A stretch of 64,000 bases of DNA from an uncultured Bacteroidales bacterium. GTDB taxonomy: Bacteria > Bacteroidota > Bacteroidia > Bacteroidales > UBA932. Shown here one piece after another: positions 13,135 through 35,424 of this stretch. How positions within the stretch are numbered: the stretch's first letter is position 1; the number at the start of each line of letters is the position of its first letter. Made by a program: the position numbers and the translations under genes. The DNA lies in NCBI GenBank assembly GCA_944322715.1, contig CALUPT010000007.1, positions 62,001-126,000 of the forward strand, read 5' to 3'. The notes below the pieces were generated by a model. The model saw nothing but the letters and a program-made list of their open reading frames with translations. It did no database searches and was not told the origin of the DNA.

Positions 13135-13139
13135 AACAG

Positions 13140-14211: not shown

Positions 14212-17037
14212 ATGAAAGCACCGAGACTCTTGACATTTCTGCTTGCGGCTGCGGTTCTCCCTGCATGTCAGAAAGAAGAACTGGCCGGTCCGGAGTACGA
14301 TATGGATGCCGTTGCATTCCGCGGTACTGCGACCTTTGCCGCTTCAGGTTCATCGGAAGAGGCCTTTGACCTGCTCTGGGAAGCCGATGTGGACCGTATC
14401 GGTCTGTTCACGCTTGCCGGAGGCGAGGTAGAACTGGCCAATGTCTATTATGCCGCATACTCCAGCGAGTCTGGAAGCGTGGATTTCCTCAGCCCATCCC
14501 GAAACAAGGGGATAAAATGGGATGAGACCAGTGCGGTAGTGCGTGACATCTATGCCTATTATCCGTACAAGGCTTCCAACAACGACTATACCTCCATCCC
14601 TGTCTCCATTTCCGCAAGGCAGACCGGCAAGGCTGGAGATGCAAGGGCGGTGAAGAAAAACATCAGCCTGTATTCATCGGCAACGGATGTAGCCTCTTCG
14701 GCGGAAACGGTGCCTCTCTCGTTCGAGAGCACCGCTGCCATTATCAGGCTCGACATCAGTTCGAATGTGCCGATACCGTCCGTAAAGGAACTCACGCTTT
14801 CCGCTGACCAGGGAGTGAGCCTTGCATCGGAAGGAGGTTCCCTCGATATTTCCGCGGGGACTCTCACGTGGAATTCTTCCGTCGCGCCATCGAATGTCAT
14901 TGAATATACGTTCCGGGAACCGGTGAGCATCAGCAGTTCTCCTGTCACTGTCTATCTTGCGGTCAATGCCCTGTCCCAGGGTATAGTCCTCGACCTCGAC
15001 ATTGAGTACGGAAACGACAAGGCCCTCTATCTCGGTGAACTGACGGTGCCGGAAGGAGGCATAAAGGCAGGGACCGTAACCACATATCCTGTGGATTTCG
15101 AGTATGAGGGTGCAGAAGGTTACGAGAATGCCATCGACCTGAGTGCAAACGGTACTGCAAACACCTATATCGTTTCCAAAGCGGGAGCGACTTACCGTTT
15201 CGATGCCACTGTCAAGGGCAACGGCATCCCGCGCACATTCACATGGACAGAGAGCGACGGCACGGAGATCACCCGTTCCTATTCGGACCTCGACATCAAT
15301 CCTGTGGATGTACGTCTCGTATGGTACAACTCGCCGAAGACTGCCGATGGGTATTCCGACAAGAGTCCGGTGGACCTCAGTTCTGTGATGTATGAGCTTG
15401 GTACGATATACTTCACTACACCAGAGCCGTTTGTCCCTGGTAACGTGCTGCTCGCGGCATACAATGAAAGCGGCGAGATTCTCTGGAGCTGGAACATCTG
15501 GGCTGCGGAGAACTATGATCCGGAGACTACGGCGAAGACGGCCGGCCGTTATACCGTTATGGACAGGAATCTCGGCGCCGTCGCAGGCCCTGAGGTGATG
15601 AACAGTTCCGACATCCGTGAGGCAGCCTGGGCAGTCGGCAACTATTACCAGTGGGGCCGCAAGGATCCGTTCCCGGCTCCTGCAGAATACAGCGATGATG
15701 GATTGGATGGCGGAAAGGAAATGTACTGGGGTCTTCCTACCCACACACAGATAGCAGATTATATGCAGGATTATTCATCCAAATCATGGGGTTCTGCAGA
15801 CCTCATCTTCGGAAGCGAGCCTGCGGACAACGGACGCCAGCTCTCATCCGTGCTCGGCAGCAGTTTTACCGTGGACCAGGCGGTGGAGGAATCCATCAAA
15901 TATCCTTATCGCTGGATGTTCTGGTCAGGAACGGATAGCGGTAACGACAATTACAACTGGACCAGAAGCAGCCTTTCCGGAACGGCAAACGCCAAGGCAT
16001 GGCGTTATCTCTGGGGCAATCCTATAGTTGACCCTGAATACGGCACCGATGAGTCCGACAACGTGAAGACCATCTATGACCCGTGCCCTCCTGGCTGGAA
16101 AGTGATGCCGCGCGAGGCCTATGCTTTCGCAGCAGCCAGTACGACTGCCCTGTCCCACGGGCGGTACAACGAGCATACCGGATTATATTTCCCTGCAACG
16201 GGCCAGAGACAGGCAGGTTTCGGAGGAAGCCAGATCCGATCCCTTGGAGGACTGTCCATATTCCTCGAGACTTCGAATGTTTCGGACAACGAGCAGTGGC
16301 AGGGCAACGAGGGCGGAGTCAGCGATTATAACTCGTATATAGGCGCCGGCTACAATGTCCGCTGTGTCAAGGAAGAGGCAGGAAGTCTCTCCCTGTCCCA
16401 TGCGGGTCCTGCGTGCGTGCTCATAGGCGACTCCATCACGAGGACATGGAACAGTTATGTCCCGACATTCTTCCCTGACCACAACTGTGTGGCCTACGGA
16501 GCGGATGGTACCACCACCAACAATTTCGTGGGCAGGTTCTTCTCCCAGGCGATCGCCAACGACCCTAAGGTCGTGCATATAATGGGCGGTATCAACGATA
16601 TGGCCGGCAATGACGGATCAATCCCTACGGAAGAGGAAATCTTCGAAAACTTCAAGACCATGGCGGAGCAGGCCGCAAGCTGGGGCATCAAGGTGATGAT
16701 AGGCTCCACTCCTCCTGCGGGCAGGATAGGCTGGCAGAATGATGAATGGAATGCCGAGCATCCTGTTATCCCGCGTGTGCAGAATCTCAACAAAATGCTG
16801 AAGGCATACTGCGAAGAGCGCGGCTTCACCTATGTGGACTACTATTCTGAGCTTGTGGATGAGACAGGTGCCCTGAAACAGCAGTACAGGAACGATGATG
16901 TCCATCCTAATACCGGCTGTTTCGAGACTGTGATGGGCCCTATCTTCCTCGATGCCCTTCAGAAGACCATGCATGTCGAGGGGTCGGCCGGCACGGGAGG
17001 CAATGTGGATGATTTCGAAAAAGAGCCATGGAACTGA
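14212..17037 (+). CDS. Fimbrillin-like lipoprotein with FISUMP-type domain and C-terminal SGNH hydrolase (array member 1 of 8)
   Basis: This 941-residue lipoprotein (Cys19, VLPAC) opens the paralogue array. Its N-terminal half is fimbrillin-like (WEADVDRIGLF, DIYAYYPYKAS). The central module is the WYNSPKTA type (ITRSYSDLDINPVDVRLVWY). The Fibrobacter-succinogenes-major-paralogous domain follows (YYQWGRKDPFPAP, YDPCPPGWKVMP, YNVRCVKEE). Residues about 733-930 form an SGNH/GDSL hydrolase with Ser741 in LIGDSITRTWNSY, MGGINDMAGN, and the DDVHPN Asp/His block, so the catalytic set looks complete. SGNH enzymes are mostly esterases or deacetylases. The C-terminus is GGNVDDFEKEPWN. Its signal peptide differs from the MKYTPY type of members 2-8. 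Surface location is expected; the enzyme's substrate cannot be told. Confidence 0.88.
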   Translation: MKAPRLLTFLLAAAVLPACQKEELAGPEYDMDAVAFRGTATFAASGSSEEAFDLLWEADVDRIGLFTLAGGEVELANVYYAAYSSESGSVDFLSPSRNKGIKWDETSAVVRDIYAYYPYKASNNDYTSIPVSISARQTGKAGDARAVKKNISLYSSATDVASSAETVPLSFESTAAIIRLDISSNVPIPSVKELTLSADQGVSLASEGGSLDISAGTLTWNSSVAPSNVIEYTFREPVSISSSPVTVYLAVNALSQGIVLDLDIEYGNDKALYLGELTVPEGGIKAGTVTTYPVDFEYEGAEGYENAIDLSANGTANTYIVSKAGATYRFDATVKGNGIPRTFTWTESDGTEITRSYSDLDINPVDVRLVWYNSPKTADGYSDKSPVDLSSVMYELGTIYFTTPEPFVPGNVLLAAYNESGEILWSWNIWAAENYDPETTAKTAGRYTVMDRNLGAVAGPEVMNSSDIREAAWAVGNYYQWGRKDPFPAPAEYSDDGLDGGKEMYWGLPTHTQIADYMQDYSSKSWGSADLIFGSEPADNGRQLSSVLGSSFTVDQAVEESIKYPYRWMFWSGTDSGNDNYNWTRSSLSGTANAKAWRYLWGNPIVDPEYGTDESDNVKTIYDPCPPGWKVMPREAYAFAAASTTALSHGRYNEHTGLYFPATGQRQAGFGGSQIRSLGGLSIFLETSNVSDNEQWQGNEGGVSDYNSYIGAGYNVRCVKEEAGSLSLSHAGPACVLIGDSITRTWNSYVPTFFPDHNCVAYGADGTTTNNFVGRFFSQAIANDPKVVHIMGGINDMAGNDGSIPTEEEIFENFKTMAEQAASWGIKVMIGSTPPAGRIGWQNDEWNAEHPVIPRVQNLNKMLKAYCEERGFTYVDYYSELVDETGALKQQYRNDDVHPNTGCFETVMGPIFLDALQKTMHVEGSAGTGGNVDDFEKEPWN

Positions 17038-17039
17038 CC

Positions 17040-17089
17040 TGTCATTCTGAGCGACAACATTGTCATTCTGAGCGCAGCGAAGAATCTGA
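17040..17089 (+). repeat. Intergenic TGTCATTCTGAGCG repeat, one short and one full copy
   Basis: A short copy (TGTCATTCTGAGCG, from 17040) and a full copy (17061-17089, continuing into CAGCGAAGAATCTGA) start 2 bases after the stop codon of array member 1 and end 22 bases before member 2. Confidence 0.75.
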
Positions 17090-17111
17090 TAAAACGAAAA
17101 AATAAAATACT

Positions 17112-19430
17112 ATGAAATATACACCATATATCGCAATTCTGGCCATGCTGCTGGCGACCGCATGCGCCAAGGAAGAACTCAAGGAGGAGCAGCAGCTCCC
17201 CCTTCCGGAGAACGGAATCCGTTTTTCCGGCACCATGGGTGCTGCCACTCCGGCAGACTCTCCGTCCACCCGTACCGTATATGAGGATCAGTCCGACAGG
17301 ATAGCCGTACAGTGGGAGTTGGGGGATGAAATAGGCCTTTTCTGTGAAGTAGGGGAAGGCGCCGGGAACCTCGAACTCACCGCGGCCAACTACGGTTACC
17401 GCAACAAGACGGTTGCAGATTCAAAGACAGCGGATTTCTCCGAATATCTTCTGCCGGGAGAGGTCGCCTGCTGGAGCGATGAGACCACTCCGCATGACTT
17501 CTATGCCTACTACCCGTATAGTGAGACTGCCTCCGGGACTGAAGCCGACCCGAGGGCTGTCCCTGTAGAACTGCCTGCAGTCCAGTCCTGGATTTCAACG
17601 GCTCCTATGGACTATTTCTCGGATATAGACTTCATGTATGCCGAGGCTCTTGACCAGACGCAGACGGCGGTGGGCGAAGACAAGCCTGTCAATCTCAATT
17701 TCCAGCACCTCTTCCCTGTGCTCCAGATGAATGTCCGGACCACACGCTTTGCCAGAATCGATGCCATCATCTTCAGCTGTAGGGAGACGGGTGAGGCGGT
17801 CTCTCTCGGGAAAGGCTCCACTGTAGACCTTACGACAAGAGAGATTACGGCTGCCAATGCCACAAACGAGATCCGTATAGAGGGGAGCATGAGTTCCATG
17901 ATAAGCAGCTTTTCCACTTTCCAGATGCTCGTCTCTCCGGGACATGCGGGCATGACGTTCGATGTCATACTCGAAATCAACGGAAATGAATACAAGAGAC
18001 AGGCACCGCTTGTAGTGCCTGAAGGCGGTCTTCTCGGAGGCAAGACGTATGTCGTGACTGTCGATAATCTTGAGATAGCCGAGGAAGATGCGGAACCGTT
18101 GACTGACCTTAGCGAAGAGGAACCGGCCAATACCTACTATGTGACTGAGGCGGACAGACTCTATCGTTTCCGGGCCGACATCAGGGGCAACGGGAAAGGC
18201 GTTCTGGACGGAGAACCTGCTGAAATAGACCCTAAGGGAGTCCTTGTCCTCTGGTACAGCCGTGTCCAGTTCGGTTACGGACCATGGACATATACGGAAC
18301 CTTCGATCAGTTTCGCGACCCTGAGTCTTGAACCTGACGGATATGTCTACTTCAAGACACCTGAGACATTCATCCCTGGCCAGATGGTGATAGCCGTCTT
18401 CGACAGGGAGGTGGACTACGACACGATAGAGGTGAACGCCGAGCGTCAGATCACCAATGCGAATATCCTCTGGAGCTGGAACATAATCTTTGCGGAGGGA
18501 TATGATCCCGACAATGTCGAAAACCAGATACAGAAGGGAGGATACATTTTCATGGACCGCGACCTCGGTGCGATAATCGACCCTCTGGAGGCTGTCTCCG
18601 GGACGAATGTGAATGAGGTCCAGCTCGCATCATCCTGCGGCAATGTTTACCAGTGGGGCCGCAAGGATCCGTTCCCGGGTGTCCCGGACTATACCAGTGC
18701 CAACCATACCTACATGACCAGCCTCTGGTTCGCTCCTGGATTCACTCCGGTTACTGCACTTCAGGTGGGACCGTATGAAGCACATGGAAGAAGAACGGAG
18801 GGCAATATATTCGCTAACAATGCCGATCTCCTGTGTATCAATATAGCAGGAAAGACATTGTCACCTGCCGAGGTTTTCGATATCGGGACATCTGCTCCAT
18901 ACCTGTGGATTCAGGCAGATGGCAACCTGTTCACCGATGAGAGCGCAAAGGCAGTCTGGGGCAATCCTGACCATTCCCTGGCGGTAGGGGACAAGACCAT
19001 GTACGACCCTTGTCCTCCGGGATGGAAGGTGATGAGCCGTGCTGCATGGAACGCCTTTACTGAAAACGGGACGGCTGTAGCCAAACTCGGAATCAAATCC
19101 GGAGATACCTATTTGGGAGGCAGGGGAATCTGGTATATGGATTCATGGTTCCCTTGCATAGGAGACCAGTACAGCCACAATTCAAACGGTAATCCTCAGG
19201 GAGGGACGACCAACACATACTCCAGCCATTGGCTCGACGGGTCGTTTGATGCCGCTGTCGTATTCTTCAACGCTACCGGCAAGAAGACAGGAGATGATGT
19301 TCCTGCAGGCAGCGGCTCTGCAGGCAGGACAGACAGAAGTGCTGCGGTACGCTGCATGAAGGTCATTCCTGGTCCTGTAATGCCGGGCGGCGAGGATATC
19401 GATCCTATCGAGAAGGAGGAATGGAAATGA
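17112..19430 (+). CDS. Fimbrillin-like lipoprotein with FISUMP-type domain (array member 2 of 8)
   Basis: The protein has 772 residues and lipidation Cys18 (LLATACAKEE) after the array-wide MKYTPYI start. The N-terminal half has TRTVYEDQSD, WELGDEIGLFC, HDFYAYYPYSET, DFMYAEAL and LVSPGHAGMTFDV, all conserved in paralogues and typical of fimbrillin-like (Mfa-type) folds. The central module is of the YY-VTEADRLYRF/LVLWYSRVQ type. The C-terminal domain carries VYQWGRKDPFPG, WGNP, YDPCPPGWKVMS and VRCMK. The tail after VRCMK is short (MPGGEDIDPIEKEEWK). There is no SGNH domain. It is probably a surface lipoprotein, possibly a pilin or tip adhesin; no assembly genes are adjacent. Confidence 0.87.
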   Translation: MKYTPYIAILAMLLATACAKEELKEEQQLPLPENGIRFSGTMGAATPADSPSTRTVYEDQSDRIAVQWELGDEIGLFCEVGEGAGNLELTAANYGYRNKTVADSKTADFSEYLLPGEVACWSDETTPHDFYAYYPYSETASGTEADPRAVPVELPAVQSWISTAPMDYFSDIDFMYAEALDQTQTAVGEDKPVNLNFQHLFPVLQMNVRTTRFARIDAIIFSCRETGEAVSLGKGSTVDLTTREITAANATNEIRIEGSMSSMISSFSTFQMLVSPGHAGMTFDVILEINGNEYKRQAPLVVPEGGLLGGKTYVVTVDNLEIAEEDAEPLTDLSEEEPANTYYVTEADRLYRFRADIRGNGKGVLDGEPAEIDPKGVLVLWYSRVQFGYGPWTYTEPSISFATLSLEPDGYVYFKTPETFIPGQMVIAVFDREVDYDTIEVNAERQITNANILWSWNIIFAEGYDPDNVENQIQKGGYIFMDRDLGAIIDPLEAVSGTNVNEVQLASSCGNVYQWGRKDPFPGVPDYTSANHTYMTSLWFAPGFTPVTALQVGPYEAHGRRTEGNIFANNADLLCINIAGKTLSPAEVFDIGTSAPYLWIQADGNLFTDESAKAVWGNPDHSLAVGDKTMYDPCPPGWKVMSRAAWNAFTENGTAVAKLGIKSGDTYLGGRGIWYMDSWFPCIGDQYSHNSNGNPQGGTTNTYSSHWLDGSFDAAVVFFNATGKKTGDDVPAGSGSAGRTDRSAAVRCMKVIPGPVMPGGEDIDPIEKEEWK

Positions 19431-19450
19431 TAATGAAAAAACACAAGACT

Positions 19451-21742: not shown

Positions 21743-21744
21743 AC

Positions 21745-21773
21745 TGTCATTCCGGACGAAGCGAAGAATCTGA
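21745..21773 (+). repeat. Intergenic TGTCATTC...GAAGAATCTGA repeat
   Basis: One full copy, TGTCATTCCGGACGAAGCGA followed by AGAATCTGA, begins 3 bases after the stop of array member 3. It differs from the others by CCGGACG in place of CTGAGCG. Confidence 0.75.
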
Positions 21774-21799
21774 ATAAATGAATAAAACTCTATTGTAAT

Positions 21800-24067
21800 A
21801 TGAAATATATACCATATATAACCGTTCTGACCATCCTGCTGTCGGCCGGATGTGCCAAACAGGAAACGATGGTGGAACAGCATCCTGCGATTCCGGAAAA
21901 TGCGGTAAGCTTTTCCGGAACCCTGCGGGGTGAATGGCAGCCGGCTGCCCCTGATACCAGGACATCATACGAGGACAAGGAGACTTCCGTTTCCGTCAAC
22001 TGGCTTGAAGGAGACCAGGTCGGTATCTTCTGCAATGTGGAAGAGGTGCAGACAGCAGCCAACTTCGGATATGCCACCACGCAGGCAGGAGCCACCACTG
22101 CATTTACGGCCCTTTCAACAAAAGACATTGTGCTGTGGAATAGTGAGACCGCTCTTCATGACTTCTATGCCTACTATCCGTATGCGGAGACGGCAGACGG
22201 AACAACGGCTGATTTCAAGGCTGTCCCTGTGACCCTCCCTGCTGTTCAGGAATATGATGAAGCCGCACCTATGGCGCACCTTGCCGAAAACGGTTTCATA
22301 TATGGTTCTGCAACAGGACAGGACTGGGAAACGGTAGGCGACGGTTCTGTCCCTCTCGAATTCAGGCATCTGTTCCCTCTCATAGAGGTCCGTCTCACTG
22401 CCGACAGGTTCGCCGTGGTGGATGCCATTACTTTCCGCTGTGAAAATGCTGATGAGAAGGTCTCTCTGGATGAAGGTGCCACAGTGGACCTGACTACAGG
22501 CACACTCAGCTGTGACAATGCAACGGGAACTCCTCAGACCTCCCTGCAGGGCGGACTGACTGCATTGATGAATAAACCAGTTTCCGCCTACATGCTCCTT
22601 TCTCCGGGACATGCGGGACAGAAATTCTTTGTGGATGTGACGATAGGAGAATCCGAATACAAGGAAGTCAAGGAACTTACCGTTCCTGAAGGCGGTCTTC
22701 AGGGAGGTACCACATATATTGTCAATGTGGATCTGGCGGTGAACGAATCCGATGCGGAACCTGTGACCGACCTGAGCGCAAACGGTACGGCCAACAGTTA
22801 TTATGTCACTATACCTGGCACCCTCTACAGTTTCGATGCCACTGTCAAGGGCAACGGCGAGGAGTTGTATGCACTTGAAGAGACGTCCATTGAGCCGAAG
22901 AGCCTGCTCGTGCTCTGGTACACGTGTCTGCAGACATCTTCTGAACCGTGGGCGCGGAATGAACCTATCCTCGTGGAGACCCTGACTCTCGGTCCTGACG
23001 GCAGGGCATACTTCAAGACACCGGTAGCATTCGTCCCTGGAAATGTGGTGATTGTCGCGCTTGACAAGGAACTCGACTATGACGATGTGACCGCAGATGA
23101 AGCCACGCGAGTCATTTCCGAGGCCAATATTCTCTGGAGCTGGAACCTTGTGGTGGCCGAGGGATATGACCCAATGGCTGCGGAAAACCAGTATGACAAG
23201 GGTGGATATACATTCATGTCCCGCGACCTCGGGGCGGTCATCGACCCTGAGGATGCCGTGCTTGGCGGAACGACCAATATGTATGCTCTGGCCGGTACGG
23301 CCGGCAACTGCTACCAGTGGGGCCGCAAGGACCCGTTCCCTGCTTTCCCGTGTTATGACAGCGGTAAAGATGGAGGGCTGTCATTCACACCTGCATACAC
23401 TCTGATTCCTGCCCTTGACAGAGGGACGGTTCCGGCGGACGGAACCGGCAGACCGGCATATAACCAGATTTTCGGGAATAAAGCCGAATCCATTTCTGTC
23501 GATGTAGGCGGCAATACCTACAATACTACTGCTGAATTCGTGCAGGAGCAGACGAGAAATCCTCACATCTGGCTCAAGATGTGGAATATCCCGGGAGATG
23601 ACAGGGCAGAGTTGTGGGGTGGCGGCAATGCCGGAGTCAAGACCATCCATGACCCTTGTCCTCCGGGATATATGGTGATGACCAAGGCGGCATGGAATGC
23701 CCTGACGGACAACCAGACTACGACTCAGGCTGTGATTGTGGACCACAGGAGAGGAATCCTGTTGGACGGCTCATGCTATTTCCCTGTCTACGGTAACATT
23801 CCTTACCGTACAAAAGATGGTATATGCCAGGGAGACAGGGGATGTTTTAACCATACATCCAATGGAGGCCGTACAGGACTGTGGACTTCTGAGATGACTG
23901 CCGTTTCCTTCTATGGAGGAGGGAAAAACCCTGGTGATGCAGCCGTCTTTACTACAGTCGACAACCCTGATCTGTTTGGCGGTTGCAGTGTCCGCTGTAT
24001 CAGACAGACAGCCGGACCGGCAGTCTCAGGCGGCAGCGTAGTCGACCTCGACCGCGAAAACTGGTAA
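21800..24067 (+). CDS. Fimbrillin-like lipoprotein with FISUMP-type domain (array member 4 of 8)
   Basis: The protein has 755 residues and lipidation Cys18 (LLSAGCAKQE). Conserved blocks are TRTSYEDKE, WLEGDQVGIFC, HDFYAYYPYAET, FRHLFPLIEV and LLSPGHAGQKFFV. The central module is of the WYTCLQTSSEPW type, the closest relative of member 3, with runs such as GRAYFKTP and FVPGNVVIVALDKEL shared almost unchanged. The C-terminal domain (about 440-735) has CYQWGRKDPFPAFPCY, HDPCPPGYMVMTK and SVRCIRQT. The tail is VSGGSVVDLDRENW. The WYTCLQTS module and the rest do not always group with the same paralogues, suggesting exchange between copies. Confidence 0.87.
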   Translation: MKYIPYITVLTILLSAGCAKQETMVEQHPAIPENAVSFSGTLRGEWQPAAPDTRTSYEDKETSVSVNWLEGDQVGIFCNVEEVQTAANFGYATTQAGATTAFTALSTKDIVLWNSETALHDFYAYYPYAETADGTTADFKAVPVTLPAVQEYDEAAPMAHLAENGFIYGSATGQDWETVGDGSVPLEFRHLFPLIEVRLTADRFAVVDAITFRCENADEKVSLDEGATVDLTTGTLSCDNATGTPQTSLQGGLTALMNKPVSAYMLLSPGHAGQKFFVDVTIGESEYKEVKELTVPEGGLQGGTTYIVNVDLAVNESDAEPVTDLSANGTANSYYVTIPGTLYSFDATVKGNGEELYALEETSIEPKSLLVLWYTCLQTSSEPWARNEPILVETLTLGPDGRAYFKTPVAFVPGNVVIVALDKELDYDDVTADEATRVISEANILWSWNLVVAEGYDPMAAENQYDKGGYTFMSRDLGAVIDPEDAVLGGTTNMYALAGTAGNCYQWGRKDPFPAFPCYDSGKDGGLSFTPAYTLIPALDRGTVPADGTGRPAYNQIFGNKAESISVDVGGNTYNTTAEFVQEQTRNPHIWLKMWNIPGDDRAELWGGGNAGVKTIHDPCPPGYMVMTKAAWNALTDNQTTTQAVIVDHRRGILLDGSCYFPVYGNIPYRTKDGICQGDRGCFNHTSNGGRTGLWTSEMTAVSFYGGGKNPGDAAVFTTVDNPDLFGGCSVRCIRQTAGPAVSGGSVVDLDRENW

Positions 24068-24070
24068 TCC

Positions 24071-24093
24071 TGTCATTCTGATCGAAGAATCTG
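24071..24093 (+). repeat. Intergenic TGTCATTCTG...GAAGAATCTG repeat, shortened
   Basis: TGTCATTCTGATCGAAGAAT then CTG, a copy with a 6-base internal deletion relative to the full unit. It begins 3 bases after the stop of array member 4. Confidence 0.65.
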
Positions 24094-24118
24094 TAAAAAT
24101 GAATAAAACTATTACGAC

Positions 24119-26416
24119 ATGAAATATACACCATATATAACCGTTCTGACTGTCCTGCTTGCTGCCGCATGCGCCAAGCAGGAGACGGTCGGGGAACAGC
24201 AGCCGGCTCTTCCGGAGAATGCAGTCAGCTTTTCGGGAACAGTGTCAAGGGGAGGCAGTCCGATGGATGCCTCTCCTGACACCAGAACGATATATGAAGA
24301 TATGTCTGAGAAGCTGGCAGTGACATGGGCAGAGGGAGATGAGGTAGGAATCTTCTGCGAGACGGGGGAGGAAAATGCTTCCGTTGCCTCCAACTATGGC
24401 TACAGGACGGCAGCCGCCGGAGCGACTTCTGCTTTCGTGCCTATGGACAGCTACAATCAGGTCATAACCTGGGCGGACATGACGACCGCACATGACTTCT
24501 ATGCGTACTATCCGTATTCACCGGCGCAGGAAGGCTCCACGGTTGACAGGCACAAGGTTCCTGTCAGCCTGCCGTCTGTCCAGACATTCGATGCCGCCGA
24601 CCCTCTGGGACATCTGGCGGACATCGACTTCATGTACGCCAGTGCCGTGGACAGGACCGCTGACGGAGGAATGGTCTCGTTCGATTTCAGTTATCTGTTT
24701 TCCGTGCTTGAAGTGAGATTGACGACTTCCTTGCTCGCCACGGTAGATGCCATTGAACTGAGTTGTACGGAAGACGCGGAAGCCGTTGCATTTGAAGGCG
24801 CGACTGTCGACATTGAGACAGGCGCTCTCGACATGACGGGAGCCTCCGTGTCCAGCACCATACGTCTTGAAGGCAGCCAGGAGACAAGTATTGGGGACTA
24901 TGTGTCCTTCTTCATGCTCATCTCTCCTGGTCATGCCGGCAAGACATTCGACATCACTGCCGAGATAGGCGGCACACCATACACTGTCGTTTCAGGGAAG
25001 GCTGCTCCCGAGGCTGGGTTCGCTGCCGGCAAGACATACGTGCTGGATGCAGGTCAGGTGGAAGTGGATATTGAAGATGCCACTCCTTTCGTTGACCTTA
25101 GCGCGGGCGGTACCGCCAACAGCTATTATGTGACCGCACCGGACATGCTGTACAGGTTCCGTGCAGATGTCAAGGGCAATGGAGTCGATCCTGCCGATGG
25201 CGATGTCACCATGGCACCGGAAGCCGCACTTGTCCTATGGTACACCTGTTTCCAGACAAACCACAGCCCATGGCTGCAGGAATCACCGATCGTTATCGGT
25301 TCATTGGAATTAGAGTCTGATGGATACATTTACTTCCGGACACCGGAGACTTTCGTGAACGGAAATGTGGTTGTCATCGCTCTTGATGAGGATCTTGACT
25401 ATGCTGAAATCCAGGCCCAGGACCGTCAGATTACCAATGCAAACGTGCTGTGGAGCTGGAATCTCGTAGTCACCGAAGGGTATGACCCGAACAGTGTCGC
25501 CAGCCAGTTCACCAAGGGTGGCTATACTTTCATGAGCAGGGATCTCGGTGCTATCATCGATCCGGAGCAGGCCCTGATCGGAGGGACCTGGAACAGGACA
25601 GCCCTTGCCGCAGCAATAGGCAACTGCTACCAGTGGGGACGAAAGGACCCGTTCCCGTCCCTGCCTGATGTCAATTCATATATAGCGAGCTATACCACCA
25701 ATCTGCATTTTACTCCTGCATATACCCCTATTCCTGCACTGGATCTGGGCAGATTTGGAATGACGACACCTGACAGGTCTGCAGACCACCAGATTCTGGG
25801 GACGACGGATGAGACCATCTGCATGACTGTACCGGCTGATGTCACCACCCCTGAAGCCTGTATCGGGCTGCTTACGGAGAATCCCCATATCTGGATGACA
25901 CTTTCCGGAGAAGGGTATCTTGTGCCGGATGATGCAGGAAAGGCTGTATGGGGGAATCCTGAGAATTCCGGGATCGGAGAGAAGACCATGTATGACCCTT
26001 GCCCTCCAGGATGGAAAGTGATGAGCAGGGATGCATGGCTGGCTCTGACAGACAACCTCAGCAGCACGGTCGCAAAGACGGATGGTGTAGATGGAATCCT
26101 TGTGGATGACAGGTATTATTTCCCTGTGACAGGAGGCCGGTGGCGCAACAGTAAAGGATATGCCAGCGGTTATGCTGCAAGCTGCGGGATACAGGCAGAG
26201 TCAGGCTACTGGTTCGATTCCCGGACAGATAACGGATACGGCAATTTCCGCACTGCCGTCAATTTCGCGGCTGAAGGAGGGGACCGTAGCGTCACATGCA
26301 GCACCCCGACTACAACATACGGGACAGACGGTGCAAGTGTCCGCTGCATCAAGATAAATCCTGGTACGGCAGTCCCTGGCGGAGAGCTTGACAACTTCGA
26401 CAAGAAGGACTGGTAA
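24119..26416 (+). CDS. Fimbrillin-like lipoprotein with FISUMP-type domain (array member 5 of 8)
   Basis: The protein has 765 residues and lipidation Cys18 (LLAAACAKQE). Fimbrillin-like blocks are TRTIYEDMSE, WAEGDEVGIFC, HDFYAYYPYSPA, DFMYASAV and LISPGHAGKTFDI. The central module is of the LVLWYTCFQTNHSPW type. The C-terminal domain has CYQWGRKDPFPSLPD, NPHIW, YDPCPPGWKVMS and SVRCIKIN. The tail is VPGGELDNFDKKDW. No SGNH domain is present. Its leader (AATAAAACTATTACGACATG) is nearly the same as that of member 8. Confidence 0.87.
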   Translation: MKYTPYITVLTVLLAAACAKQETVGEQQPALPENAVSFSGTVSRGGSPMDASPDTRTIYEDMSEKLAVTWAEGDEVGIFCETGEENASVASNYGYRTAAAGATSAFVPMDSYNQVITWADMTTAHDFYAYYPYSPAQEGSTVDRHKVPVSLPSVQTFDAADPLGHLADIDFMYASAVDRTADGGMVSFDFSYLFSVLEVRLTTSLLATVDAIELSCTEDAEAVAFEGATVDIETGALDMTGASVSSTIRLEGSQETSIGDYVSFFMLISPGHAGKTFDITAEIGGTPYTVVSGKAAPEAGFAAGKTYVLDAGQVEVDIEDATPFVDLSAGGTANSYYVTAPDMLYRFRADVKGNGVDPADGDVTMAPEAALVLWYTCFQTNHSPWLQESPIVIGSLELESDGYIYFRTPETFVNGNVVVIALDEDLDYAEIQAQDRQITNANVLWSWNLVVTEGYDPNSVASQFTKGGYTFMSRDLGAIIDPEQALIGGTWNRTALAAAIGNCYQWGRKDPFPSLPDVNSYIASYTTNLHFTPAYTPIPALDLGRFGMTTPDRSADHQILGTTDETICMTVPADVTTPEACIGLLTENPHIWMTLSGEGYLVPDDAGKAVWGNPENSGIGEKTMYDPCPPGWKVMSRDAWLALTDNLSSTVAKTDGVDGILVDDRYYFPVTGGRWRNSKGYASGYAASCGIQAESGYWFDSRTDNGYGNFRTAVNFAAEGGDRSVTCSTPTTTYGTDGASVRCIKINPGTAVPGGELDNFDKKDW

Positions 26417-26417
26417 T

Positions 26418-26468
26418 TGTCATTCCGATTGGAGCAATGTCATTCTGAGCGTCAGCGAAGAATCTGAT
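26418..26468 (+). repeat. Intergenic TGTCATTC repeat, one degenerate and one full copy
   Basis: A degenerate copy (TGTCATTCCGATTGGAGCAA, from 26418) is followed by a full copy (26438-26468, TGTCATTCTGAGCGTCAGCG then AAGAATCTGA). The first starts one base after the stop of array member 5. Confidence 0.7.
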
Positions 26469-26497
26469 GAATTGAATAAAACATAATGTCAAACGAT

Positions 26498-29368
26498 ATG
26501 AAATACAGACAATATCTTACCGCGCTTGCCGTCCTTCTTGCGACGGCATGCGCCAAAGAGGAAATAACAGAGGAGCCGAGGCCCGCTCTGCCGGAGGACG
26601 CCGTCATGTTCTCCGGCTCGGTGGAGCGGCTGGCCGGCACAAAGACATCGTATGAAGATACCGATGAATCCATCATAGTGTCATGGGCCGAGAAGGACAG
26701 GATAGGGGTGTTCTGCGAAGTGGATGGTTCGGCTACGGCAGCCAATTACGGCTATCAGAACGGAACCGCAGGGCAGACAGCCTCGTTCTCTGCCATCGAT
26801 GCCGGCAAGGTCATCAGAAAGGCCGAGGGTTCCCATACATTCTATGCCTACTATCCTTATACGGCGGGTGATCAGCTGAATGCGGATGCCGTGCCTGTGA
26901 CCCTTCCTGCCGAACAGAAATTCGACCCTGCCCTTCCGCAGGGACAGTTCTCCGCCCTTGACTTCATGTATGCCAAGGCGGAGGGCGTGACATTCTCCCT
27001 GGAAGGACAGGAGGACCAGGTGGTGCCTCTGACCTTCTCCCACCTTTTCTCCGTCCTCGAAGTAAGGATTGCAACTACAAGGCCTGCCATTGTGGACAAG
27101 CTGATATTCAGCTGTGATGAGACAGCAGAGGCCGTCTCTCTCGGAGCCGGCTCTACCGTCAGCCTCAAGACAGGGGAAATCACTGCGGCAGAGACATCCA
27201 ATACTGTTACTCTGACCGGCAGCCAGGGTACGATGCCCGGCAGCCTGACCTCGTGGCAGATGTTCATTACTCCCGGGCATGCGGGCAAGACATTTACCGT
27301 CAAGGCTGTCATAAACGGCAATGAATACACTGTTGCGGAAGCCAAGGCCGCTCCGGAAGGAGGTTTCCTTGCCGGAGACACCTACCGTCTGACCAATGAC
27401 AATCTGGAGGTCAATGCGGCAGATGCCACGACAACCGACCTCAGCATCAACGGTACGGCAAATACCTATATCATTTCCGAGGCCGCCACGACCTATACGT
27501 TCAACGCAAAGGTCATGGGCAACGGCGTGCCGCGCACATTCACATGGACAGAGAGCGATGGAACGGAGATTACCCGCTCCTATTCGGATCTCAACATCGA
27601 GCCTGAAGATGTGAAGGTGGTGTGGTACAACACTCCAAAGACAGCCGGAGGCTATGTCAACGAGTGCCCGATTATCCTTGAGAGCGTCTCATACGACAAG
27701 GCTACAGGTCTCGTGACCTTCATTACCCCTCAGCCGTTCGTGACCGGAAATGTCCTGCTCGCCGCGTATGATGCCGCCGGGACGATCCTCTGGAGCTGGA
27801 ACATCTGGGCTGCAGGAGAGGGTTACAGTGCCGATGCAACGGCAAGGAATGTGGGCAGGTACGTGATGATGGACCGCAACCTCGGCGCCGCCGCCGGCCC
27901 GGAGGTGATGAATACAGCGGATGATGCCAAGGCTGTAGGACATTATTACCAGTGGGGCCGCAAGGATCCGTTCCCTGCCATGGCTGAATACGCGAAATCC
28001 CCTACCGGAGTCATTGCGACTTCCGGAGGTAATACCGGCAGCTGGGGATTGCCATCACACACTCCGATAGATGAACTCAAGAGCGCTAATCAGACTCTGG
28101 AATTTAACGACCTGATTTTCGGTACTGATGCAATCGCAAACTGCTGTCAGTTGAAGACTGAAATAGGCGACAGTTTCACTACAGAACAGAGTCTGCCTGT
28201 GTCCATCAAGTATCCTTACAAATGGATGTCTTACGAAGGCAGTGATGCAAGATGGAACGAATATGTCTGGTCGGCACCGTATAATATGCTGTCATCGCCG
28301 GAAGAAAGATTTTCATGGCGCTATCTCTGGGGTAATCCTAATCCGAATGCAAGTGTAGAGCAGACAGACAATGTCAAGACCATCTATGACCCTTGTCCTC
28401 CGGGCTGGAAAGTCATGCCGCGCCTTGCATGGGAGTTTGTGGATGATGGTCTCGAGACATTGACAAACGGATATTACAGTCCTGTGTACGACCTTTATTT
28501 CCCGTTCACCGGACAGAGGCAGGCCGGTTTTGGAGGCAGCCTGATACAGGCTGTGGATATGCAGTATCTCCATACATGCAATGTCGGCGGGACTGCCCAG
28601 TGGGAGGTAATCAGGAATATGCTGACCAATAATCTGACCTACACCGCCGCAGGTCACAATGTCCGCTGCGTCAAGGAGGATATGGTTGTAGCAGACCTTC
28701 CTCACAGGGGCCCGCTTTGCGTGCTCATCGGTGATTCGATTACAAGAACATGGAACTCGTATGATGGAGGCTTCTTCTCTTCCAACAATCTCCTTGCAAA
28801 GGGGGCCGATGGACAGACGAGCCAGCAGATCCTCGACAGGTTCTACAGCGATGTGATCACCAACACCCCTCCGGCGGTGCATATAATGTGCGGAATCAAC
28901 GACATAGCCAACAATGACGGGGCGAACCGTACCAATGAAGGCATTTTCGCTAATATCAAGGCTATGGCTGAAATGGCCGCAGGTTACGGGATCAAGGTGA
29001 TGATCGGTTCGACCCCTCCTGCCAACTATATCTGGTGGGTGGACAATGCAGAGCAGTGGAACGAGGAGCATCCGGACACGGCACAGCGCGTAATCGATCT
29101 GAATGAAGACCTCAAGGCATATTGCAAAGAGAACGGCTTCATCTATGTAGACTACTGGACTGCGCTTGCTGACACGGATGAAGACAATCTCAACGGTCTC
29201 AAGGAAGAATATCAGGTGGATTCGGTGCATCCTAATACCAAATGCTTCCAGGAGGTGATGGGACCGATTTTCCTGGATGCCCTTGACGAGGCTCTTGAAA
29301 TCCCTGGCTCGGCTGCACCTGGCGGTCAGCTCGATGATTTCGACAGAGAGGATATTACACTTAACTGA
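26498..29368 (+). CDS. Fimbrillin-like lipoprotein with FISUMP-type domain and C-terminal SGNH hydrolase (array member 6 of 8)
   Basis: An ATG at 26486 is in frame, but the ATG at 26498 matches the MKY start of the paralogues and gives 956 residues with lipidation Cys18 (LLATACAKEE). Fimbrillin-like blocks are TKTSYEDTDE, WAEKDRIGVFC, HTFYAYYPYTAG, DFMYAKAEG and FITPGHAGKTFTV. The central module is of the WYNTPKTAGG type, nearly the same as member 1. The C-terminal domain has YYQWGRKDPFPAM, YDPCPPGWKVMP and NVRCVKED. An SGNH hydrolase follows: Ser747 in LIGDSITRTWNSY, MCGINDIANN, and a DSVHPN block. The domain joins directly after VRCVKE, as in member 1. The tail is PGGQLDDFDREDITLN. Only 8 bases separate it from member 7. 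Confidence 0.88.
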   Translation: MKYRQYLTALAVLLATACAKEEITEEPRPALPEDAVMFSGSVERLAGTKTSYEDTDESIIVSWAEKDRIGVFCEVDGSATAANYGYQNGTAGQTASFSAIDAGKVIRKAEGSHTFYAYYPYTAGDQLNADAVPVTLPAEQKFDPALPQGQFSALDFMYAKAEGVTFSLEGQEDQVVPLTFSHLFSVLEVRIATTRPAIVDKLIFSCDETAEAVSLGAGSTVSLKTGEITAAETSNTVTLTGSQGTMPGSLTSWQMFITPGHAGKTFTVKAVINGNEYTVAEAKAAPEGGFLAGDTYRLTNDNLEVNAADATTTDLSINGTANTYIISEAATTYTFNAKVMGNGVPRTFTWTESDGTEITRSYSDLNIEPEDVKVVWYNTPKTAGGYVNECPIILESVSYDKATGLVTFITPQPFVTGNVLLAAYDAAGTILWSWNIWAAGEGYSADATARNVGRYVMMDRNLGAAAGPEVMNTADDAKAVGHYYQWGRKDPFPAMAEYAKSPTGVIATSGGNTGSWGLPSHTPIDELKSANQTLEFNDLIFGTDAIANCCQLKTEIGDSFTTEQSLPVSIKYPYKWMSYEGSDARWNEYVWSAPYNMLSSPEERFSWRYLWGNPNPNASVEQTDNVKTIYDPCPPGWKVMPRLAWEFVDDGLETLTNGYYSPVYDLYFPFTGQRQAGFGGSLIQAVDMQYLHTCNVGGTAQWEVIRNMLTNNLTYTAAGHNVRCVKEDMVVADLPHRGPLCVLIGDSITRTWNSYDGGFFSSNNLLAKGADGQTSQQILDRFYSDVITNTPPAVHIMCGINDIANNDGANRTNEGIFANIKAMAEMAAGYGIKVMIGSTPPANYIWWVDNAEQWNEEHPDTAQRVIDLNEDLKAYCKENGFIYVDYWTALADTDEDNLNGLKEEYQVDSVHPNTKCFQEVMGPIFLDALDEALEIPGSAAPGGQLDDFDREDITLN

Positions 29369-29376
29369 TCACTGCC

Positions 29377-31737
29377 ATGAAATATACATCATATCTTACA
29401 ATGCTGGCTGTCCTGCTTGCGGCAGCCTGTACAAAGGACGACATTACAGAGACTGTCACGCAGCCTGCTCCGGAGAATGCCATCAGCTTCTCCGGGCAGA
29501 TGAAGCCTGCCGATGGCGATGCGTCTGCACCGGGTACCCGTACCACGTACGGTGACAACGGGAAGGCAATCACCGTGGAGTGGGCCGAGGGTGACGAGAT
29601 AGGAGTCTTCGCCAAGGCCGGGGATGAGCTTATCGCTTCCAACTACGGTTACAGGACCCGTTCTGCAGGCAAGGAGACCACATTCGGTTTCATGATCTAT
29701 GATGATGCCGTCTGCTGGGCCGATGAGACGACCGGGCATGATTTCTATGCCTATTATCCTTATTCCAAGACAACAGGAGATGACGTGCCGGACTATACCG
29801 CCGTTCCTGTGACACTTCCGGCAGAGCAGGTTTATGACCCTGCCGACCCTCAGGGACAGTTCGCTGCCCTGGACTTCATGTATGCGGCTGCCACAGGGCA
29901 GACACAGGCGGCTGTCGGACAGGGGAGCGTGCCTCTGCAGTTCTCCCATCTGTTCTCCATACTGGAGGTGAAGGTCACTACCGACAGGTTCGCCACCATC
30001 GATGGGATTGTGCTTCGCTGCAAGGACAGCGGAGAGATACTGTCATACGGTGATGGTACTACAGTCGATCTCTCGACAGGAACCGTAACTCCGGCAGAAA
30101 CAGGCAACGGTGCTGAAATCATAGTTGCAGGTACGCAGAGTACGAAGGTCAGTTCCTACACTACCTGGCAGATGATGATATCTTCCGGCCATGCGGACAA
30201 GGAGTTCGAGGTATTGGCGATGATCAATGACAAGGAACAGCTTGCTGCTTCCTTTACCGTGCCTGCCGCCGGACTTGCCGCAGGGAAGACCTACTGCGTG
30301 ACCGTCGATGGCATGAAGATAGCTGATGAGGATGCGGAGACGATAGTCGACCTCAGTGCTGACGGTACCGCCAACTGCTACTATGTCACCCAGCCTAATA
30401 CCCTCTACCGTTTCAACGCATCCGTGAAAGGCAACGGAGAAGCCTTGTCGATTGACGGCCTTTCATATAGCGAGGCCGATCTCAAAATAGCCCCGGAATC
30501 GGCGCTTGTATTGTGGTACAACTGTCTCCAGACATCATATTCCCCATGGCAGCAGCGCGAACCGATTGTTGTGGCATCATTGGGGCTTGAGGAGGATGGA
30601 TATGTCTATTTCAGGACTCCTGAGACATTTGTTCCGGGTAATGTCGTGGTGATTGCCCTCGATGAGAAGCTCGGATACGAGGATGTGGAAGCAGAAGGTT
30701 CGATGGAAACAGTATGGCAGATAAGCAATGCCAATGTGCTCTGGAGCTGGAATCTTGTTGTGACAGAGTACGATCCGAATGATGCAGCAAACCAGATTAC
30801 CCATGGAGGCTATACGATAATGGACCGTAATCTCGGGGCTGTTGTACATTGGGAGAATACAACGAGGACGCCGATGGCTATGTTGGAATCCATAGACCTG
30901 GCGTGGACTACCGGCAACTGCTACCAGTGGGGCCGTAAGGATCCGTTCCCTGGAACTCCTGACTATATGAGCAACACTGCAACCTATATGTCCTGCCTGT
31001 GGTTCTCCCCTGCGTTTACGCCGGTGAATGCTCTTGACCGTGGCACATATATCGCTCCGAGTTATATTGCAGGCCGGAATGCCGACCATCAGATATTCGG
31101 AACCACGACTGAGACGGTATGTCTGGATATCCGCACCTCGGACTATACAAGCGGTCAGATATTCAGACTCCAGTCTGCCAACCCGCATCTGTGGATATAC
31201 AGGAACAATAACGGTGATGCGACCAACAAAATGTTCAGTGATCCCGAAGGGCTTGCCGCCTGGGGCAATCCGTCACAGGATGTTGTAGGCCAGAAGACCA
31301 TCTATGATCCTTGTCCTCCGGGCTGGAAAGTGATGACCAAGGCTGCGTGGATGGGTATTACTGACAGTCAGACTGCGGCTCCGGAATTCCGTGCGGACCA
31401 GACAGGGCGAGGAGTCTTCCTTTACGGCAAGTTCTTCCCGCTTGCAGGAAATGCGACATTATGGCACAATTCCAATGCAGCTCCGGATGGGAATGTACGC
31501 GGCGGCGGCCACGCCCTCTACTTTGTAGACGGTCCTGATGCAGGCATGACTTCTGCACATGTGGTCGGATTCGGTACCTCATCCAATTTCTTCGACGCAG
31601 GTGGGGACATGACAATCACCCAGGTCGCAAACGACACCAACAGTGACAGGGGTGCTGCCGTACGCTGTATGAAGATACCTTCAGGACAGGCTGTCCCTGG
31701 CGGAGACATCGATGGCTTCGAAGGAGTCGACTGGTAG
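29377..31737 (+). CDS. Fimbrillin-like lipoprotein with FISUMP-type domain (array member 7 of 8)
   Basis: The protein has 786 residues and lipidation Cys18 (LLAAACTKDD). Fimbrillin-like blocks are TRTTYGDNG, WAEGDEIGVFA, HDFYAYYPYSKT, DFMYAAATGQ, FSHLFSILEV and MISSGHADKEFEV. The central module is of the LVLWYNCLQTSYSPW type, with an insertion (ALSIDGLSYSEADLK) absent from the others. The C-terminal domain has CYQWGRKDPFPGTPDY, NPHLW, YDPCPPGWKVMTK and AVRCMKIP. The tail is VPGGDIDGFEGVDW. It starts 8 bases after member 6, with no repeat between, so the two are likely co-transcribed. Confidence 0.87.
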   Translation: MKYTSYLTMLAVLLAAACTKDDITETVTQPAPENAISFSGQMKPADGDASAPGTRTTYGDNGKAITVEWAEGDEIGVFAKAGDELIASNYGYRTRSAGKETTFGFMIYDDAVCWADETTGHDFYAYYPYSKTTGDDVPDYTAVPVTLPAEQVYDPADPQGQFAALDFMYAAATGQTQAAVGQGSVPLQFSHLFSILEVKVTTDRFATIDGIVLRCKDSGEILSYGDGTTVDLSTGTVTPAETGNGAEIIVAGTQSTKVSSYTTWQMMISSGHADKEFEVLAMINDKEQLAASFTVPAAGLAAGKTYCVTVDGMKIADEDAETIVDLSADGTANCYYVTQPNTLYRFNASVKGNGEALSIDGLSYSEADLKIAPESALVLWYNCLQTSYSPWQQREPIVVASLGLEEDGYVYFRTPETFVPGNVVVIALDEKLGYEDVEAEGSMETVWQISNANVLWSWNLVVTEYDPNDAANQITHGGYTIMDRNLGAVVHWENTTRTPMAMLESIDLAWTTGNCYQWGRKDPFPGTPDYMSNTATYMSCLWFSPAFTPVNALDRGTYIAPSYIAGRNADHQIFGTTTETVCLDIRTSDYTSGQIFRLQSANPHLWIYRNNNGDATNKMFSDPEGLAAWGNPSQDVVGQKTIYDPCPPGWKVMTKAAWMGITDSQTAAPEFRADQTGRGVFLYGKFFPLAGNATLWHNSNAAPDGNVRGGGHALYFVDGPDAGMTSAHVVGFGTSSNFFDAGGDMTITQVANDTNSDRGAAVRCMKIPSGQAVPGGDIDGFEGVDW

Positions 31738-31740
31738 GAA

Positions 31741-31768
31741 TGTCATTCCGAGCGTAGCGAAGAATCTG
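31741..31768 (+). repeat. Intergenic TGTCATTCCGAGCG...AAGAATCTG repeat
   Basis: One full copy (TGTCATTCCGAGCGTAGCGA then AGAATCTG) begins 3 bases after the stop of array member 7 and ends 30 bases before the start of member 8. Confidence 0.75.
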
Positions 31769-31798
31769 TTAAAATCAAATGAATCAAAATTATACGAC

Positions 31799-35342: not shown

Positions 35343-35348
35343 CGGTTC

Positions 35349-35399
35349 TGTCATTCCGAGTGGCACCCTGTCATTCTGAACGAAGTGAAGAATCTGATG
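35349..35399 (+). repeat. Intergenic TGTCATTC repeat, one short and one full copy
   Basis: A short copy (TGTCATTCCGAG, from 35349) and a full copy (35369-35399, TGTCATTCTGAACGAAGTGA then AGAATCTGATG) start 6 bases after the oxidoreductase stop and precede the DUF1080 gene. Confidence 0.75.
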
Positions 35400-35424
35400 T
35401 AGAAATGAATAAAAATTATATACA

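What the first reader, a model, noticed from the sequence alone, without database searches (positions are those of the whole stretch)
14212..34009. Eight-gene tandem array of fimbrillin-like/FISUMP-type lipoproteins
Eight consecutive same-strand genes (20 kb) encode large paralogous lipoproteins. All share a fimbrillin-like N-terminal half (TRTxYED, GDxIGxFC, HDFYAYYPY, PGHAG blocks) and a C-terminal domain with WGRKDPFP, DPCPPGxKVM and VRCxK. No pilus assembly or anchoring gene is adjacent. Each domain family is known, but such a long run of full-length two-domain copies suggests a surface-variation or multi-component surface structure that is not obviously described.
Basis: partly seen in the sequence, partly recalled or inferred. 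Interest (0 to 1): 0.85.

Follow-up and report, generated by a model that had tools for sequence, protein, structure and literature searches.

The report
Recombining array of fimbrillin-like surface lipoproteins
A gut-type Bacteroidales carries eight side-by-side genes for sticky-looking cell-surface proteins, two with an added esterase, inside a nutrient-uptake operon; related species carry 3 to 8 copies whose halves have been swapped repeatedly by recombination, which suggests a repertoire under pressure to diversify.

Summary
The eight paralogous lipoprotein genes are real (14212-34009). All have a Pfam-supported fimbrillin (Mfa_like_1) domain, then an Ig-like linker and a ~300-aa C-terminal domain that resembles FISUMP only weakly. 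(1) Genes 1 and 6 end in a GDSL/SGNH hydrolase with its catalytic motifs intact. (2) The array directly follows a co-directional BACON-SusC-SusD-Mx1 peptidase-DUF4302-subtilase-PorV-like gene set; in 400 congeneric genomes, all 6 with that PorV orthologue also have the array. (3) Related species have 3, 7 or 8 copies. Six genes keep one-to-one orthologues, but alleles are mosaic: stretches of 97-100% DNA identity (exact runs to 859 bp) switch to 50-75% identity, often in or beside the Ig linker, while flanking genes stay near 78% with no 120-bp block above 92.5%. The single gene replacing g3/g4 in two species has a g3-like N-half and g4-like C-half. No reverse transcriptase (genome) and no inverted repeats (array): neither a DGR nor inversion-based variation. 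Best reading: co-expressed surface capture proteins with a type V tip-pilin-like build, serving a Sus-type uptake system, diversified by homologous recombination. Ligands and function are inferred. New variant of a known kind.

The parts
115..2457 (+). hybrid two-component sensor/regulator (HisKA, HATPase_c, receiver, AraC-type HTH)
   Evidence: Pfam; orthologue before the same operon in G124 (76%), G362 (70%), more distant in G182 and G335/G392
2636..3826 (+). BACON-domain protein
   Evidence: PF13004 E 5e-10
3851..7168 (+). SusC-like TonB-dependent transporter
   Evidence: Plug + CarboxypepD_reg; 91-94% in G124/G182/G362, 66-70% in G214/G335/G392
7173..8837 (+). SusD-like lipoprotein
   Evidence: PF14322 E 1e-38
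8859..9743 (+). putative zinc metallopeptidase (Peptidase_Mx1)
   Evidence: PF15890 E 3e-63
9767..10726 (+). DUF4302 protein
   Evidence: PF14135 E 6e-36
10726..13134 (+). S8 subtilase with a T9SS-type C-terminal domain
   Evidence: Peptidase_S8 E 8e-38, Por_Secre_tail 25.9 bits; one of two TIGR04183 hits in the genome
13140..14099 (+). PorV-family outer-membrane barrel
   Evidence: NF033709 180 bits over cut-off 90; orthologues in 6 of 400 congeneric genomes, all with the array
14212..17037 (+). array gene 1: fimbrillin-like + Ig-like linker + C-terminal FISUMP-like domain + SGNH hydrolase
   Evidence: PF13149 47.6 bits, PF13472 71 bits; GDS / GIND / DVHP motifs
17112..19430 (+). array gene 2: fimbrillin-like + Ig-like + FISUMP-like
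   Evidence: PF13149 77.9 bits
19451..21742 (+). array gene 3 (start corrected from 19421)
   Evidence: PF13149 80.9 bits; conserved MKYTPY start
21800..24067 (+). array gene 4
   Evidence: PF13149 79.3 bits; C-terminal half is the closest match of the single g3/g4 gene of G124/G182
24119..26416 (+). array gene 5
   Evidence: PF13149 89.7 bits; weak Fib_succ_major E 0.043
26498..29368 (+). array gene 6 with C-terminal SGNH hydrolase (start corrected from 26486)
   Evidence: PF13149 85.5, PF13472 57.5 bits; AlphaFold model and Foldseek
29377..31737 (+). array gene 7
   Evidence: PF13149 94.8 bits
31799..34009 (+). array gene 8 (start corrected from 31712); A-type C-terminal domain without the hydrolase
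   Evidence: PF13149 96.6 bits; FISUMP-like half groups with genes 1 and 6
34044..35342 (+). GFO/IDH/MocA oxidoreductase, 34 bp after gene 8
   Evidence: PF19051 E 4e-138; follows g8 in G124, L105 and G362, not in G182
35425..38286 (+). HEAT-repeat + 3-keto-disaccharide hydrolase-domain protein
   Evidence: PF06439 E 1e-36
17061..17088 (+). 28-bp dispersed repeat TGTCATTCYGANCGNAGCGAAGAATCTG at the g1/g2 junction; further copies at 21745, 26438, 31741, 35369, and a degenerate one near 24070

Best explanation
The array encodes outer-membrane lipoproteins that are displayed on the cell surface and expressed together as the distal part of a Sus-type nutrient-acquisition operon. Each has a type V fimbrillin-like N-domain (spacer or stalk), an Ig-like linker and a C-terminal FISUMP-like, probably lectin-like, ligand-binding domain; two add a surface SGNH esterase. 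Together they would capture, and partly deacylate, a complex host- or diet-derived glycoconjugate or glycoprotein, while the Mx1 and S8 peptidases clip it and SusCD imports the products. The array grew by tandem duplication from a shorter array that began with a hydrolase-bearing member. It is diversified by ordinary homologous recombination, both between paralogues and with DNA from related species. Crossovers cluster in or beside the Ig segment, so N-domains and C-domains are reassorted. Shown here: the domains, the gene neighbourhood and its co-occurrence, the copy-number differences and the mosaic alleles. Inferred: surface location, co-expression, ligand binding, substrate, esterase activity and the selective pressure.
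For: Domains. SGNH motifs GDS, GIND and DxVHP in g1 and g6 of every species where that gene was read in that script; the hydrolase region is 35-38% identical to solved Bacteroides GDSL hydrolases and also matches P. vulgatus sialate O-acetylesterase. Lipobox Cys followed by [AQT]-K-acidic residues (CAKEE, CQKEE, CTKDD) resembles the surface-export signal K-(D/E)2 of PMC5080379; strict match in 5 of 8. Operon logic: gaps after corrected starts are about 8-85 bp in the array, with no inverted repeats and no full Bacteroidales consensus promoter match before 38.6 kb. Neighbourhood: all 6 genomes with a PorV orthologue at E<1e-60 among 400 congeners have the array, even where the array is on the opposite strand (G335, G392); the next hits drop to E 1e-26. 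Mosaicism among G000, G124, G182: 107 of 381 array blocks of 120 bp are >=97% identical against 0 of 241 flank blocks (maximum 92.5%), Fisher p 2e-26; exact tracts up to 859 bp. dS is 0.8-2.2 in SusC-PorV but 0-0.1 in parts of g1, g7, g8. MaxChi: 15 of 19 array comparisons have a breakpoint at p<=0.004 against 1 of 18 flank comparisons; 9 of the 15 lie in or within 5 codons of the Ig segment. The single g3/g4 gene of G124/G182 switches from g3-like to g4-like at codon 336, inside Ig. L105 g4 is g4-like, then g3-like, with a g5-like tail. N- and C-domain trees disagree for g34, G124 g8, g6 and g8.
Against: No ligand, expression or surface data exist; the organism is known here only from a genome assembly. 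The C-terminal fold is not identified: no Foldseek match below E 0.15. G214 has the array without subtilase or PorV-like gene, and in G335/G392 the array is a separate transcription unit, so the linkage is not one fixed operon. Breakpoint counts are not independent, since one event can show in two pairs. The array-bearing records whose titles are shown are MAGs, and assembler chimerism cannot be excluded without reads. Crossovers near the Ig segment could partly reflect its higher DNA conservation.
Confidence: 0.5

Rival explanations
1. Alternative tip adhesins: the eight proteins are tip pilins that cap type V pili whose stalk and anchor are encoded elsewhere in the genome; the recombining C-terminal domain sets adhesion specificity.
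For: Fimbrillin N-domain plus extra C-terminal domain is the described tip-pilin build (PMC12632263). A separate run of fimbrillin-like lipoproteins of 359-432 aa exists at G000:C4 (L223) and one clostripain-family protease is present. A basic residue (TRT/TKT) lies between the first two strands of the model, where type V pilins are cleaved, in 7 of 8.
Against: Array sits with SusCD/peptidase genes, not with stalk genes; it is found in 8 of 400 congeners; gene 1, the member always first, lacks the TRT motif; two members end in an esterase.
Confidence: 0.25
2. Heteropolymeric pilus or surface coat built from the eight subunits themselves by donor-strand exchange.
For: Eight fimbrillin-type proteins in one probable operon; 1:1 orthologues kept in a fixed order in three species.
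Against: All have large C-terminal domains where a stalk pilin has its donor strand; copy number falls to 3 in relatives; no stalk-like single-domain member in the array.
Confidence: 0.1
3. Phase or antigenic variation by switching one copy on at a time, or by inversion.
For: Tandem paralogues and mosaic alleles.
Against: No inverted repeats of 18 bp or more in 13.0-38.6 kb, tight intergenic gaps, no internal consensus promoters, all eight ORFs intact with lipobox signals.
Confidence: 0.04
4. Diversity-generating retroelement target array.
For: Tip-pilin-like proteins with C-terminal ligand-binding domains are DGR targets in Bacteroides (PMC12632263).
Against: No RVT_1 match anywhere in the own genome, while the control genomes ring; variation is in long identical-or-divergent blocks.
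Confidence: 0.01
5. The mosaic pattern is an artefact of metagenome assembly or binning that stitched alleles of co-occurring species.
For: Array-bearing records with titles shown are MAGs.
Against: Shared blocks usually carry scattered differences (97-99%), patterns switch several times and return to divergent sequence on both sides within contigs of 137-192 kb, and different pairs share different blocks.
Confidence: 0.1

Closest known systems
Bacteroidales type V pili (FimA/Mfa1 fimbrillins and tip pilins such as Mfa3 and the BACOVA_04980/04982 group)
   Same: Lipoprotein precursor, fimbrillin (Mfa_like_1) fold, TR/TK residue after the first strand, extra C-terminal domain as in tip pilins
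   Different: Eight tip-like members and no stalk or anchor in the locus; two carry a hydrolase; placed with SusCD and peptidases
Sus-like nutrient acquisition loci, including SusCD loci with a DUF4302 gene such as B. thetaiotaomicron BT3958-BT3961 (PMC10434189)
   Same: SusC, SusD and DUF4302 together; here also an HTCS regulator, an Mx1 peptidase and accessory surface lipoproteins downstream
   Different: Accessory part is a 3-8 gene fimbrillin/FISUMP-like array plus a subtilase/PorV-like pair
FISUMP / Fib_succ_major proteins
   Same: CPPGW...VRC-type signature; a 544-aa protein in the same genome has Mfa_like_1 + Fib_succ_major above cut-off
   Different: Array C-domains are about 300 aa and fall below the Pfam cut-off; profile comparison aligns only 19 columns at 90.8% probability
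SGNH/GDSL hydrolases incl. P. vulgatus sialate O-acetylesterase (6xpm, 7pzh) and 3p94, 4iyj
   Same: Fold and catalytic motifs
   Different: Fused to the end of a fimbrillin-like lipoprotein
DGR-diversified Bacteroides tip pilins
   Same: Variable C-terminal domain on a fimbrillin base
   Different: No reverse transcriptase; variation by block recombination

Membership tests
Fimbrillin-like (Mfa_like_1) lipoproteins | PF13149 match above curated cut-off | tested here: met
   8 of 8, 47.6-96.6 bits over 27
Fimbrillin-like (Mfa_like_1) lipoproteins | Fimbrillin fold in a structure model | tested here: met
   Model of gene 6, residues about 65-310 mostly pLDDT 75-93; Foldseek to 3t2l E 4e-13, 3ufi 4e-12, 4k4k 4e-12, Mfa3 5e-06
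Type V pilus (as a system) | Stalk and anchor pilins in the locus | tested here: not met
   No fimbrillin-only gene beside the array; a separate fimbrillin run is at G000:C4
Type V pilus (as a system) | Arg-directed N-terminal cleavage site | tested here: inconclusive
   TRT in 6, TKT in 1, absent in gene 1; cleavage itself not testable
Type V pilus (as a system) | Assembly into filaments | not testable with these tools
   Needs microscopy
FISUMP (Fib_succ_major) | PF09603 above cut-off | tested here: not met
   Only gene 5, 14.5 bits against 33.9
FISUMP (Fib_succ_major) | Remote similarity by profile or fold | tested here: inconclusive
   hhalign 90.8% over 19 columns; best viral-library fold hit is a FISUMP protein but E 0.15
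C-type lectin-like fold | Significant structural match of the C-domain | tested here: inconclusive
   Model pLDDT 80, pTM 0.85; most of the 40 weak PDB hits are C-type lectin-like domains but best E 0.96
SGNH/GDSL hydrolase (genes 1 and 6) | Pfam match and GDS, GxND, DxxHP motifs | tested here: met
   PF13472 71.1 and 57.5 bits; motifs present
Sus-type operon | Adjacent SusC and SusD pair | tested here: met
   3851-7168 and 7173-8837
Type IX secretion | SprA translocon in the genome | tested here: not met
   No SprA_N in G000 or congener G254, present in 93 of 99 order genomes
Diversity-generating retroelement | Reverse transcriptase | tested here: not met
   No RVT_1 in the own genome, controls positive
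Surface-exposed lipoprotein (LES) | K-(D/E)2 after the lipobox Cys | tested here: inconclusive
   Strict in g1, g2, g6, g7, g8; KEN or KQE in g3, g4, g5 (consensus from Capnocytophaga, PMC5080379)

The most novel reading that the evidence does not exclude
The array is a retroelement-free combinatorial diversification system: a conserved Ig-like segment works as the crossover hub through which several Bacteroidales species exchange and reassort N-terminal fimbrillin and C-terminal ligand-binding domains of co-expressed surface proteins, giving each lineage a different set of 3-8 binding specificities linked to one uptake system.
Probability: 0.35. Interest if true: 0.75.

Novelty: new variant of a known kind. 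Interest (0 to 1): 0.52.

Why it matters
It ties three separate themes of Bacteroidales surface biology (type V pilin folds, Sus-type uptake operons and surface esterases) into one locus, and shows that tip-pilin-like proteins can be diversified by plain domain-swapping recombination between species, without a retroelement. It offers a defined case for asking what drives exchange of surface-binding domains in the gut: ligand choice, host immunity or phages.

Tried and rejected
Chance or mis-called ORFs: rejected, since all eight have domains and conserved orthologues. DGR: rejected, no reverse transcriptase. Invertible or shufflon-type switching: no inverted repeats of 18 bp or more. Positive selection by point mutation: dN/dS is below 1 in every domain where it could be computed, mostly 0.05-0.4. 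Type IX secretion of the array proteins: no SprA in genome or tested congener; the first SprA test was uninformative because its controls were silent. NCBIfam gave no hit for the five array proteins scanned. Fold searches of the C-terminal domain gave no significant match. The paper on DGR-diversified Bacteroides tip pilins is not held. Literature search for fimbrillin plus FISUMP found nothing.
Full report
WHAT IS THERE. The window is bases 62001-126000 of contig C7 of a 2.52-Mb genome. Eight consecutive plus-strand genes fill 14212-34009. Every product has a lipoprotein signal and matches Pfam Mfa_like_1 above the curated cut-off (47.6-96.6 bits). They align over their full common length, with a fimbrillin-like region (to about residue 310), an Ig-like segment (about 315-440) and a ~300-residue C-terminal domain carrying YQWGRKDP, DPCPPG and VRC. 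'Ig-like' is my label for an all-beta segment in the model of gene 6, not a Pfam assignment. That model matches Bacteroides 'putative cell adhesion' structures and P. gingivalis Mfa3 over the fimbrillin part (sequence-profile support for 3ufi, 4k4k and 4eps).

Genes 1 and 6 are about 190 residues longer because they end in a GDSL/SGNH hydrolase with GDS, GIND and DxVHP motifs, closest by structure to Bacteroides GDSL hydrolases and also similar to sialate O-acetylesterase. Gene 1 lacks the TRT motif and gene 6 has TKT. The C-terminal domain fails the Fib_succ_major cut-off; profile comparison with a true FISUMP protein of the same genome aligns only the CPPGW stretch. A separate model of that domain is good (pLDDT 80, pTM 0.85), but fold searches return only non-significant hits, dominated by C-type lectin-like domains in the PDB and topped by a FISUMP protein in the viral library. 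I regard a lectin-like ligand-binding role as likely, not shown.

NEIGHBOURHOOD. Upstream on the same strand are a hybrid two-component regulator, a BACON protein, SusC, SusD, a Peptidase_Mx1 protein, a DUF4302 protein, an S8 subtilase with a T9SS-type tail and a PorV-family protein. Downstream, 34 bp after gene 8, are a GFO/IDH/MocA oxidoreductase and a 3-keto-disaccharide hydrolase-domain protein. With corrected starts (MKYxxY) the array genes are separated by about 8-85 bp. The full Bacteroidales promoter consensus has no match before 38605 and there are no inverted repeats of 18 bp or more in 13.0-38.6 kb. This fits one long transcription unit; it is an inference, not a measurement.

RELATIVES. 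Of 400 congeneric genomes searched, 8 (own included) have a full-length match at E<=1e-60. Reading them gives: G000, 8 genes; G124 and G182, 7 (one gene in place of g3/g4); L105 (taken as the same contig as G401; incomplete upstream), g3, g4, g6, g7, g8 without g5; G362, 3; G214, 3; G392, 3; G335, 4 including one truncated. Two Alistipes records also hold partial arrays (L106: 3 genes; L108: at least 5). In the complete arrays the first gene carries the hydrolase or matches gene 1 over its full length. A PorV orthologue at E<1e-60 occurs in exactly six of 400 congeners, all with the array; the next best hits fall to E 1e-26. In G335 and G392 the array lies on the opposite strand but still beside the PorV-like gene. 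G214 has the SusCD-Mx1-DUF4302 genes directly before the array, without subtilase or PorV-like gene.

MOSAIC ALLELES. Between G000, G124 and G182 the SusC-to-PorV genes differ fairly evenly: mean 78% nucleotide identity in 120-bp blocks, maximum 92.5%. In the array, 107 of 381 blocks are at least 97% identical while 27 are below 65% (Fisher p 2e-26 for the high blocks). Different pairs share different blocks: G124 and G182 are 97-100% identical through g2 and the g3/g4 gene; G000 and G124 share the C-half of g1, nearly all of g7, the N-half of g8 and the following oxidoreductase gene. Exact runs reach 859 bp. Synonymous divergence falls from about 1 to 0-0.1 in these parts, so protein constraint is not the cause. 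A maximum chi-square test with block permutation finds a breakpoint at p<=0.004 in 15 of 19 array comparisons and 1 of 18 flank comparisons; 9 of the 15 best cuts lie in or within 5 codons of the Ig segment. In g8, G000 and G124 share 90% of codons up to codon 441 and 35% afterwards. The single g3/g4 gene of G124 and G182 is g3-like up to codon 336 and g4-like afterwards, a crossover inside Ig. L105 g4 is g4-like, then g3-like, with a g5-like tail. Older swaps show in trees of the separate domains: the N-domains of g6 and g8 group with g5, their C-domains with g1. Within-genome identical tracts between paralogues also occur (G182 g1/g8 111 bp; L105 g3/g4 103 bp). These tests are not fully independent, since one event may be counted in two pairs.

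HOW IT PROBABLY WORKS. Surface export is suggested by the K-acidic motif after the lipobox Cys (signal described in PMC5080379). [quoted passage not shown] a separate run of fimbrillin-like genes is at G000:C4. The recurrent association with SusCD and peptidases makes a capture-and-process role for a glycoconjugate or glycoprotein the better bet, with the SGNH members removing acyl groups. Use as alternative pilus tips is the main rival. Recombination needs no dedicated enzyme here: no reverse transcriptase exists in the genome, no inverted repeats were found, and the Ig segment is the best conserved between paralogues at the DNA level (0.588 against 0.52 for the other two). A 28-bp dispersed repeat at most junctions of the G000 array could aid unequal exchange, but only one copy was found in each of G124 and G182.

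LIMITS. Array-bearing records whose titles are shown are metagenome-assembled genomes, so assembler chimerism must be excluded with long reads. Mosaicism was not compared with other surface loci of the same genomes.

VERDICT. The finding is a new variant of a known kind: tip-pilin-like lipoproteins in a Sus-type locus, multiplied and reassorted by recombination.

Noticed in passing
10726-14099 (and G000:C6:71187-74816 in locus L089): The genome has only two T9SS-type sorting tails (on S8-type proteins) and two PorV-family genes, in two adjacent pairs, yet no SprA_N match; 93 of 99 order-level genomes have SprA. A subtilase-tail/PorV-like pair without the T9SS translocon is odd.
   Followed up: partly
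17061, 21745, ~24070, 26438, 31741, 35369, 61847: Dispersed 28-bp repeat TGTCATTCYGANCGNAGCGAAGAATCTG sits at most array junctions; its translation (NVIPSVAKNL) creates the false N-terminal extension of the g8 ORF.
   Followed up: partly
C-termini of array genes 1-5 and 7, gene 6 in part: Short acidic tail of the type GGxxDxFxKExW after the last domain, kept in Alistipes and other relatives, mostly on the hydrolase-bearing members there; role unknown.
   Followed up: partly
G000:C4:3600-9700 (locus L223): Run of five fimbrillin-like lipoproteins of 359-432 aa, likely a conventional type V pilus locus of the same genome.
   Followed up: partly
34044-38286: Oxidoreductase and 3-keto-disaccharide hydrolase genes after the array follow it in G124, L105 and G362 but not in G182; the oxidoreductase is 95% identical at DNA level to G124, above its surroundings.
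   Followed up: partly
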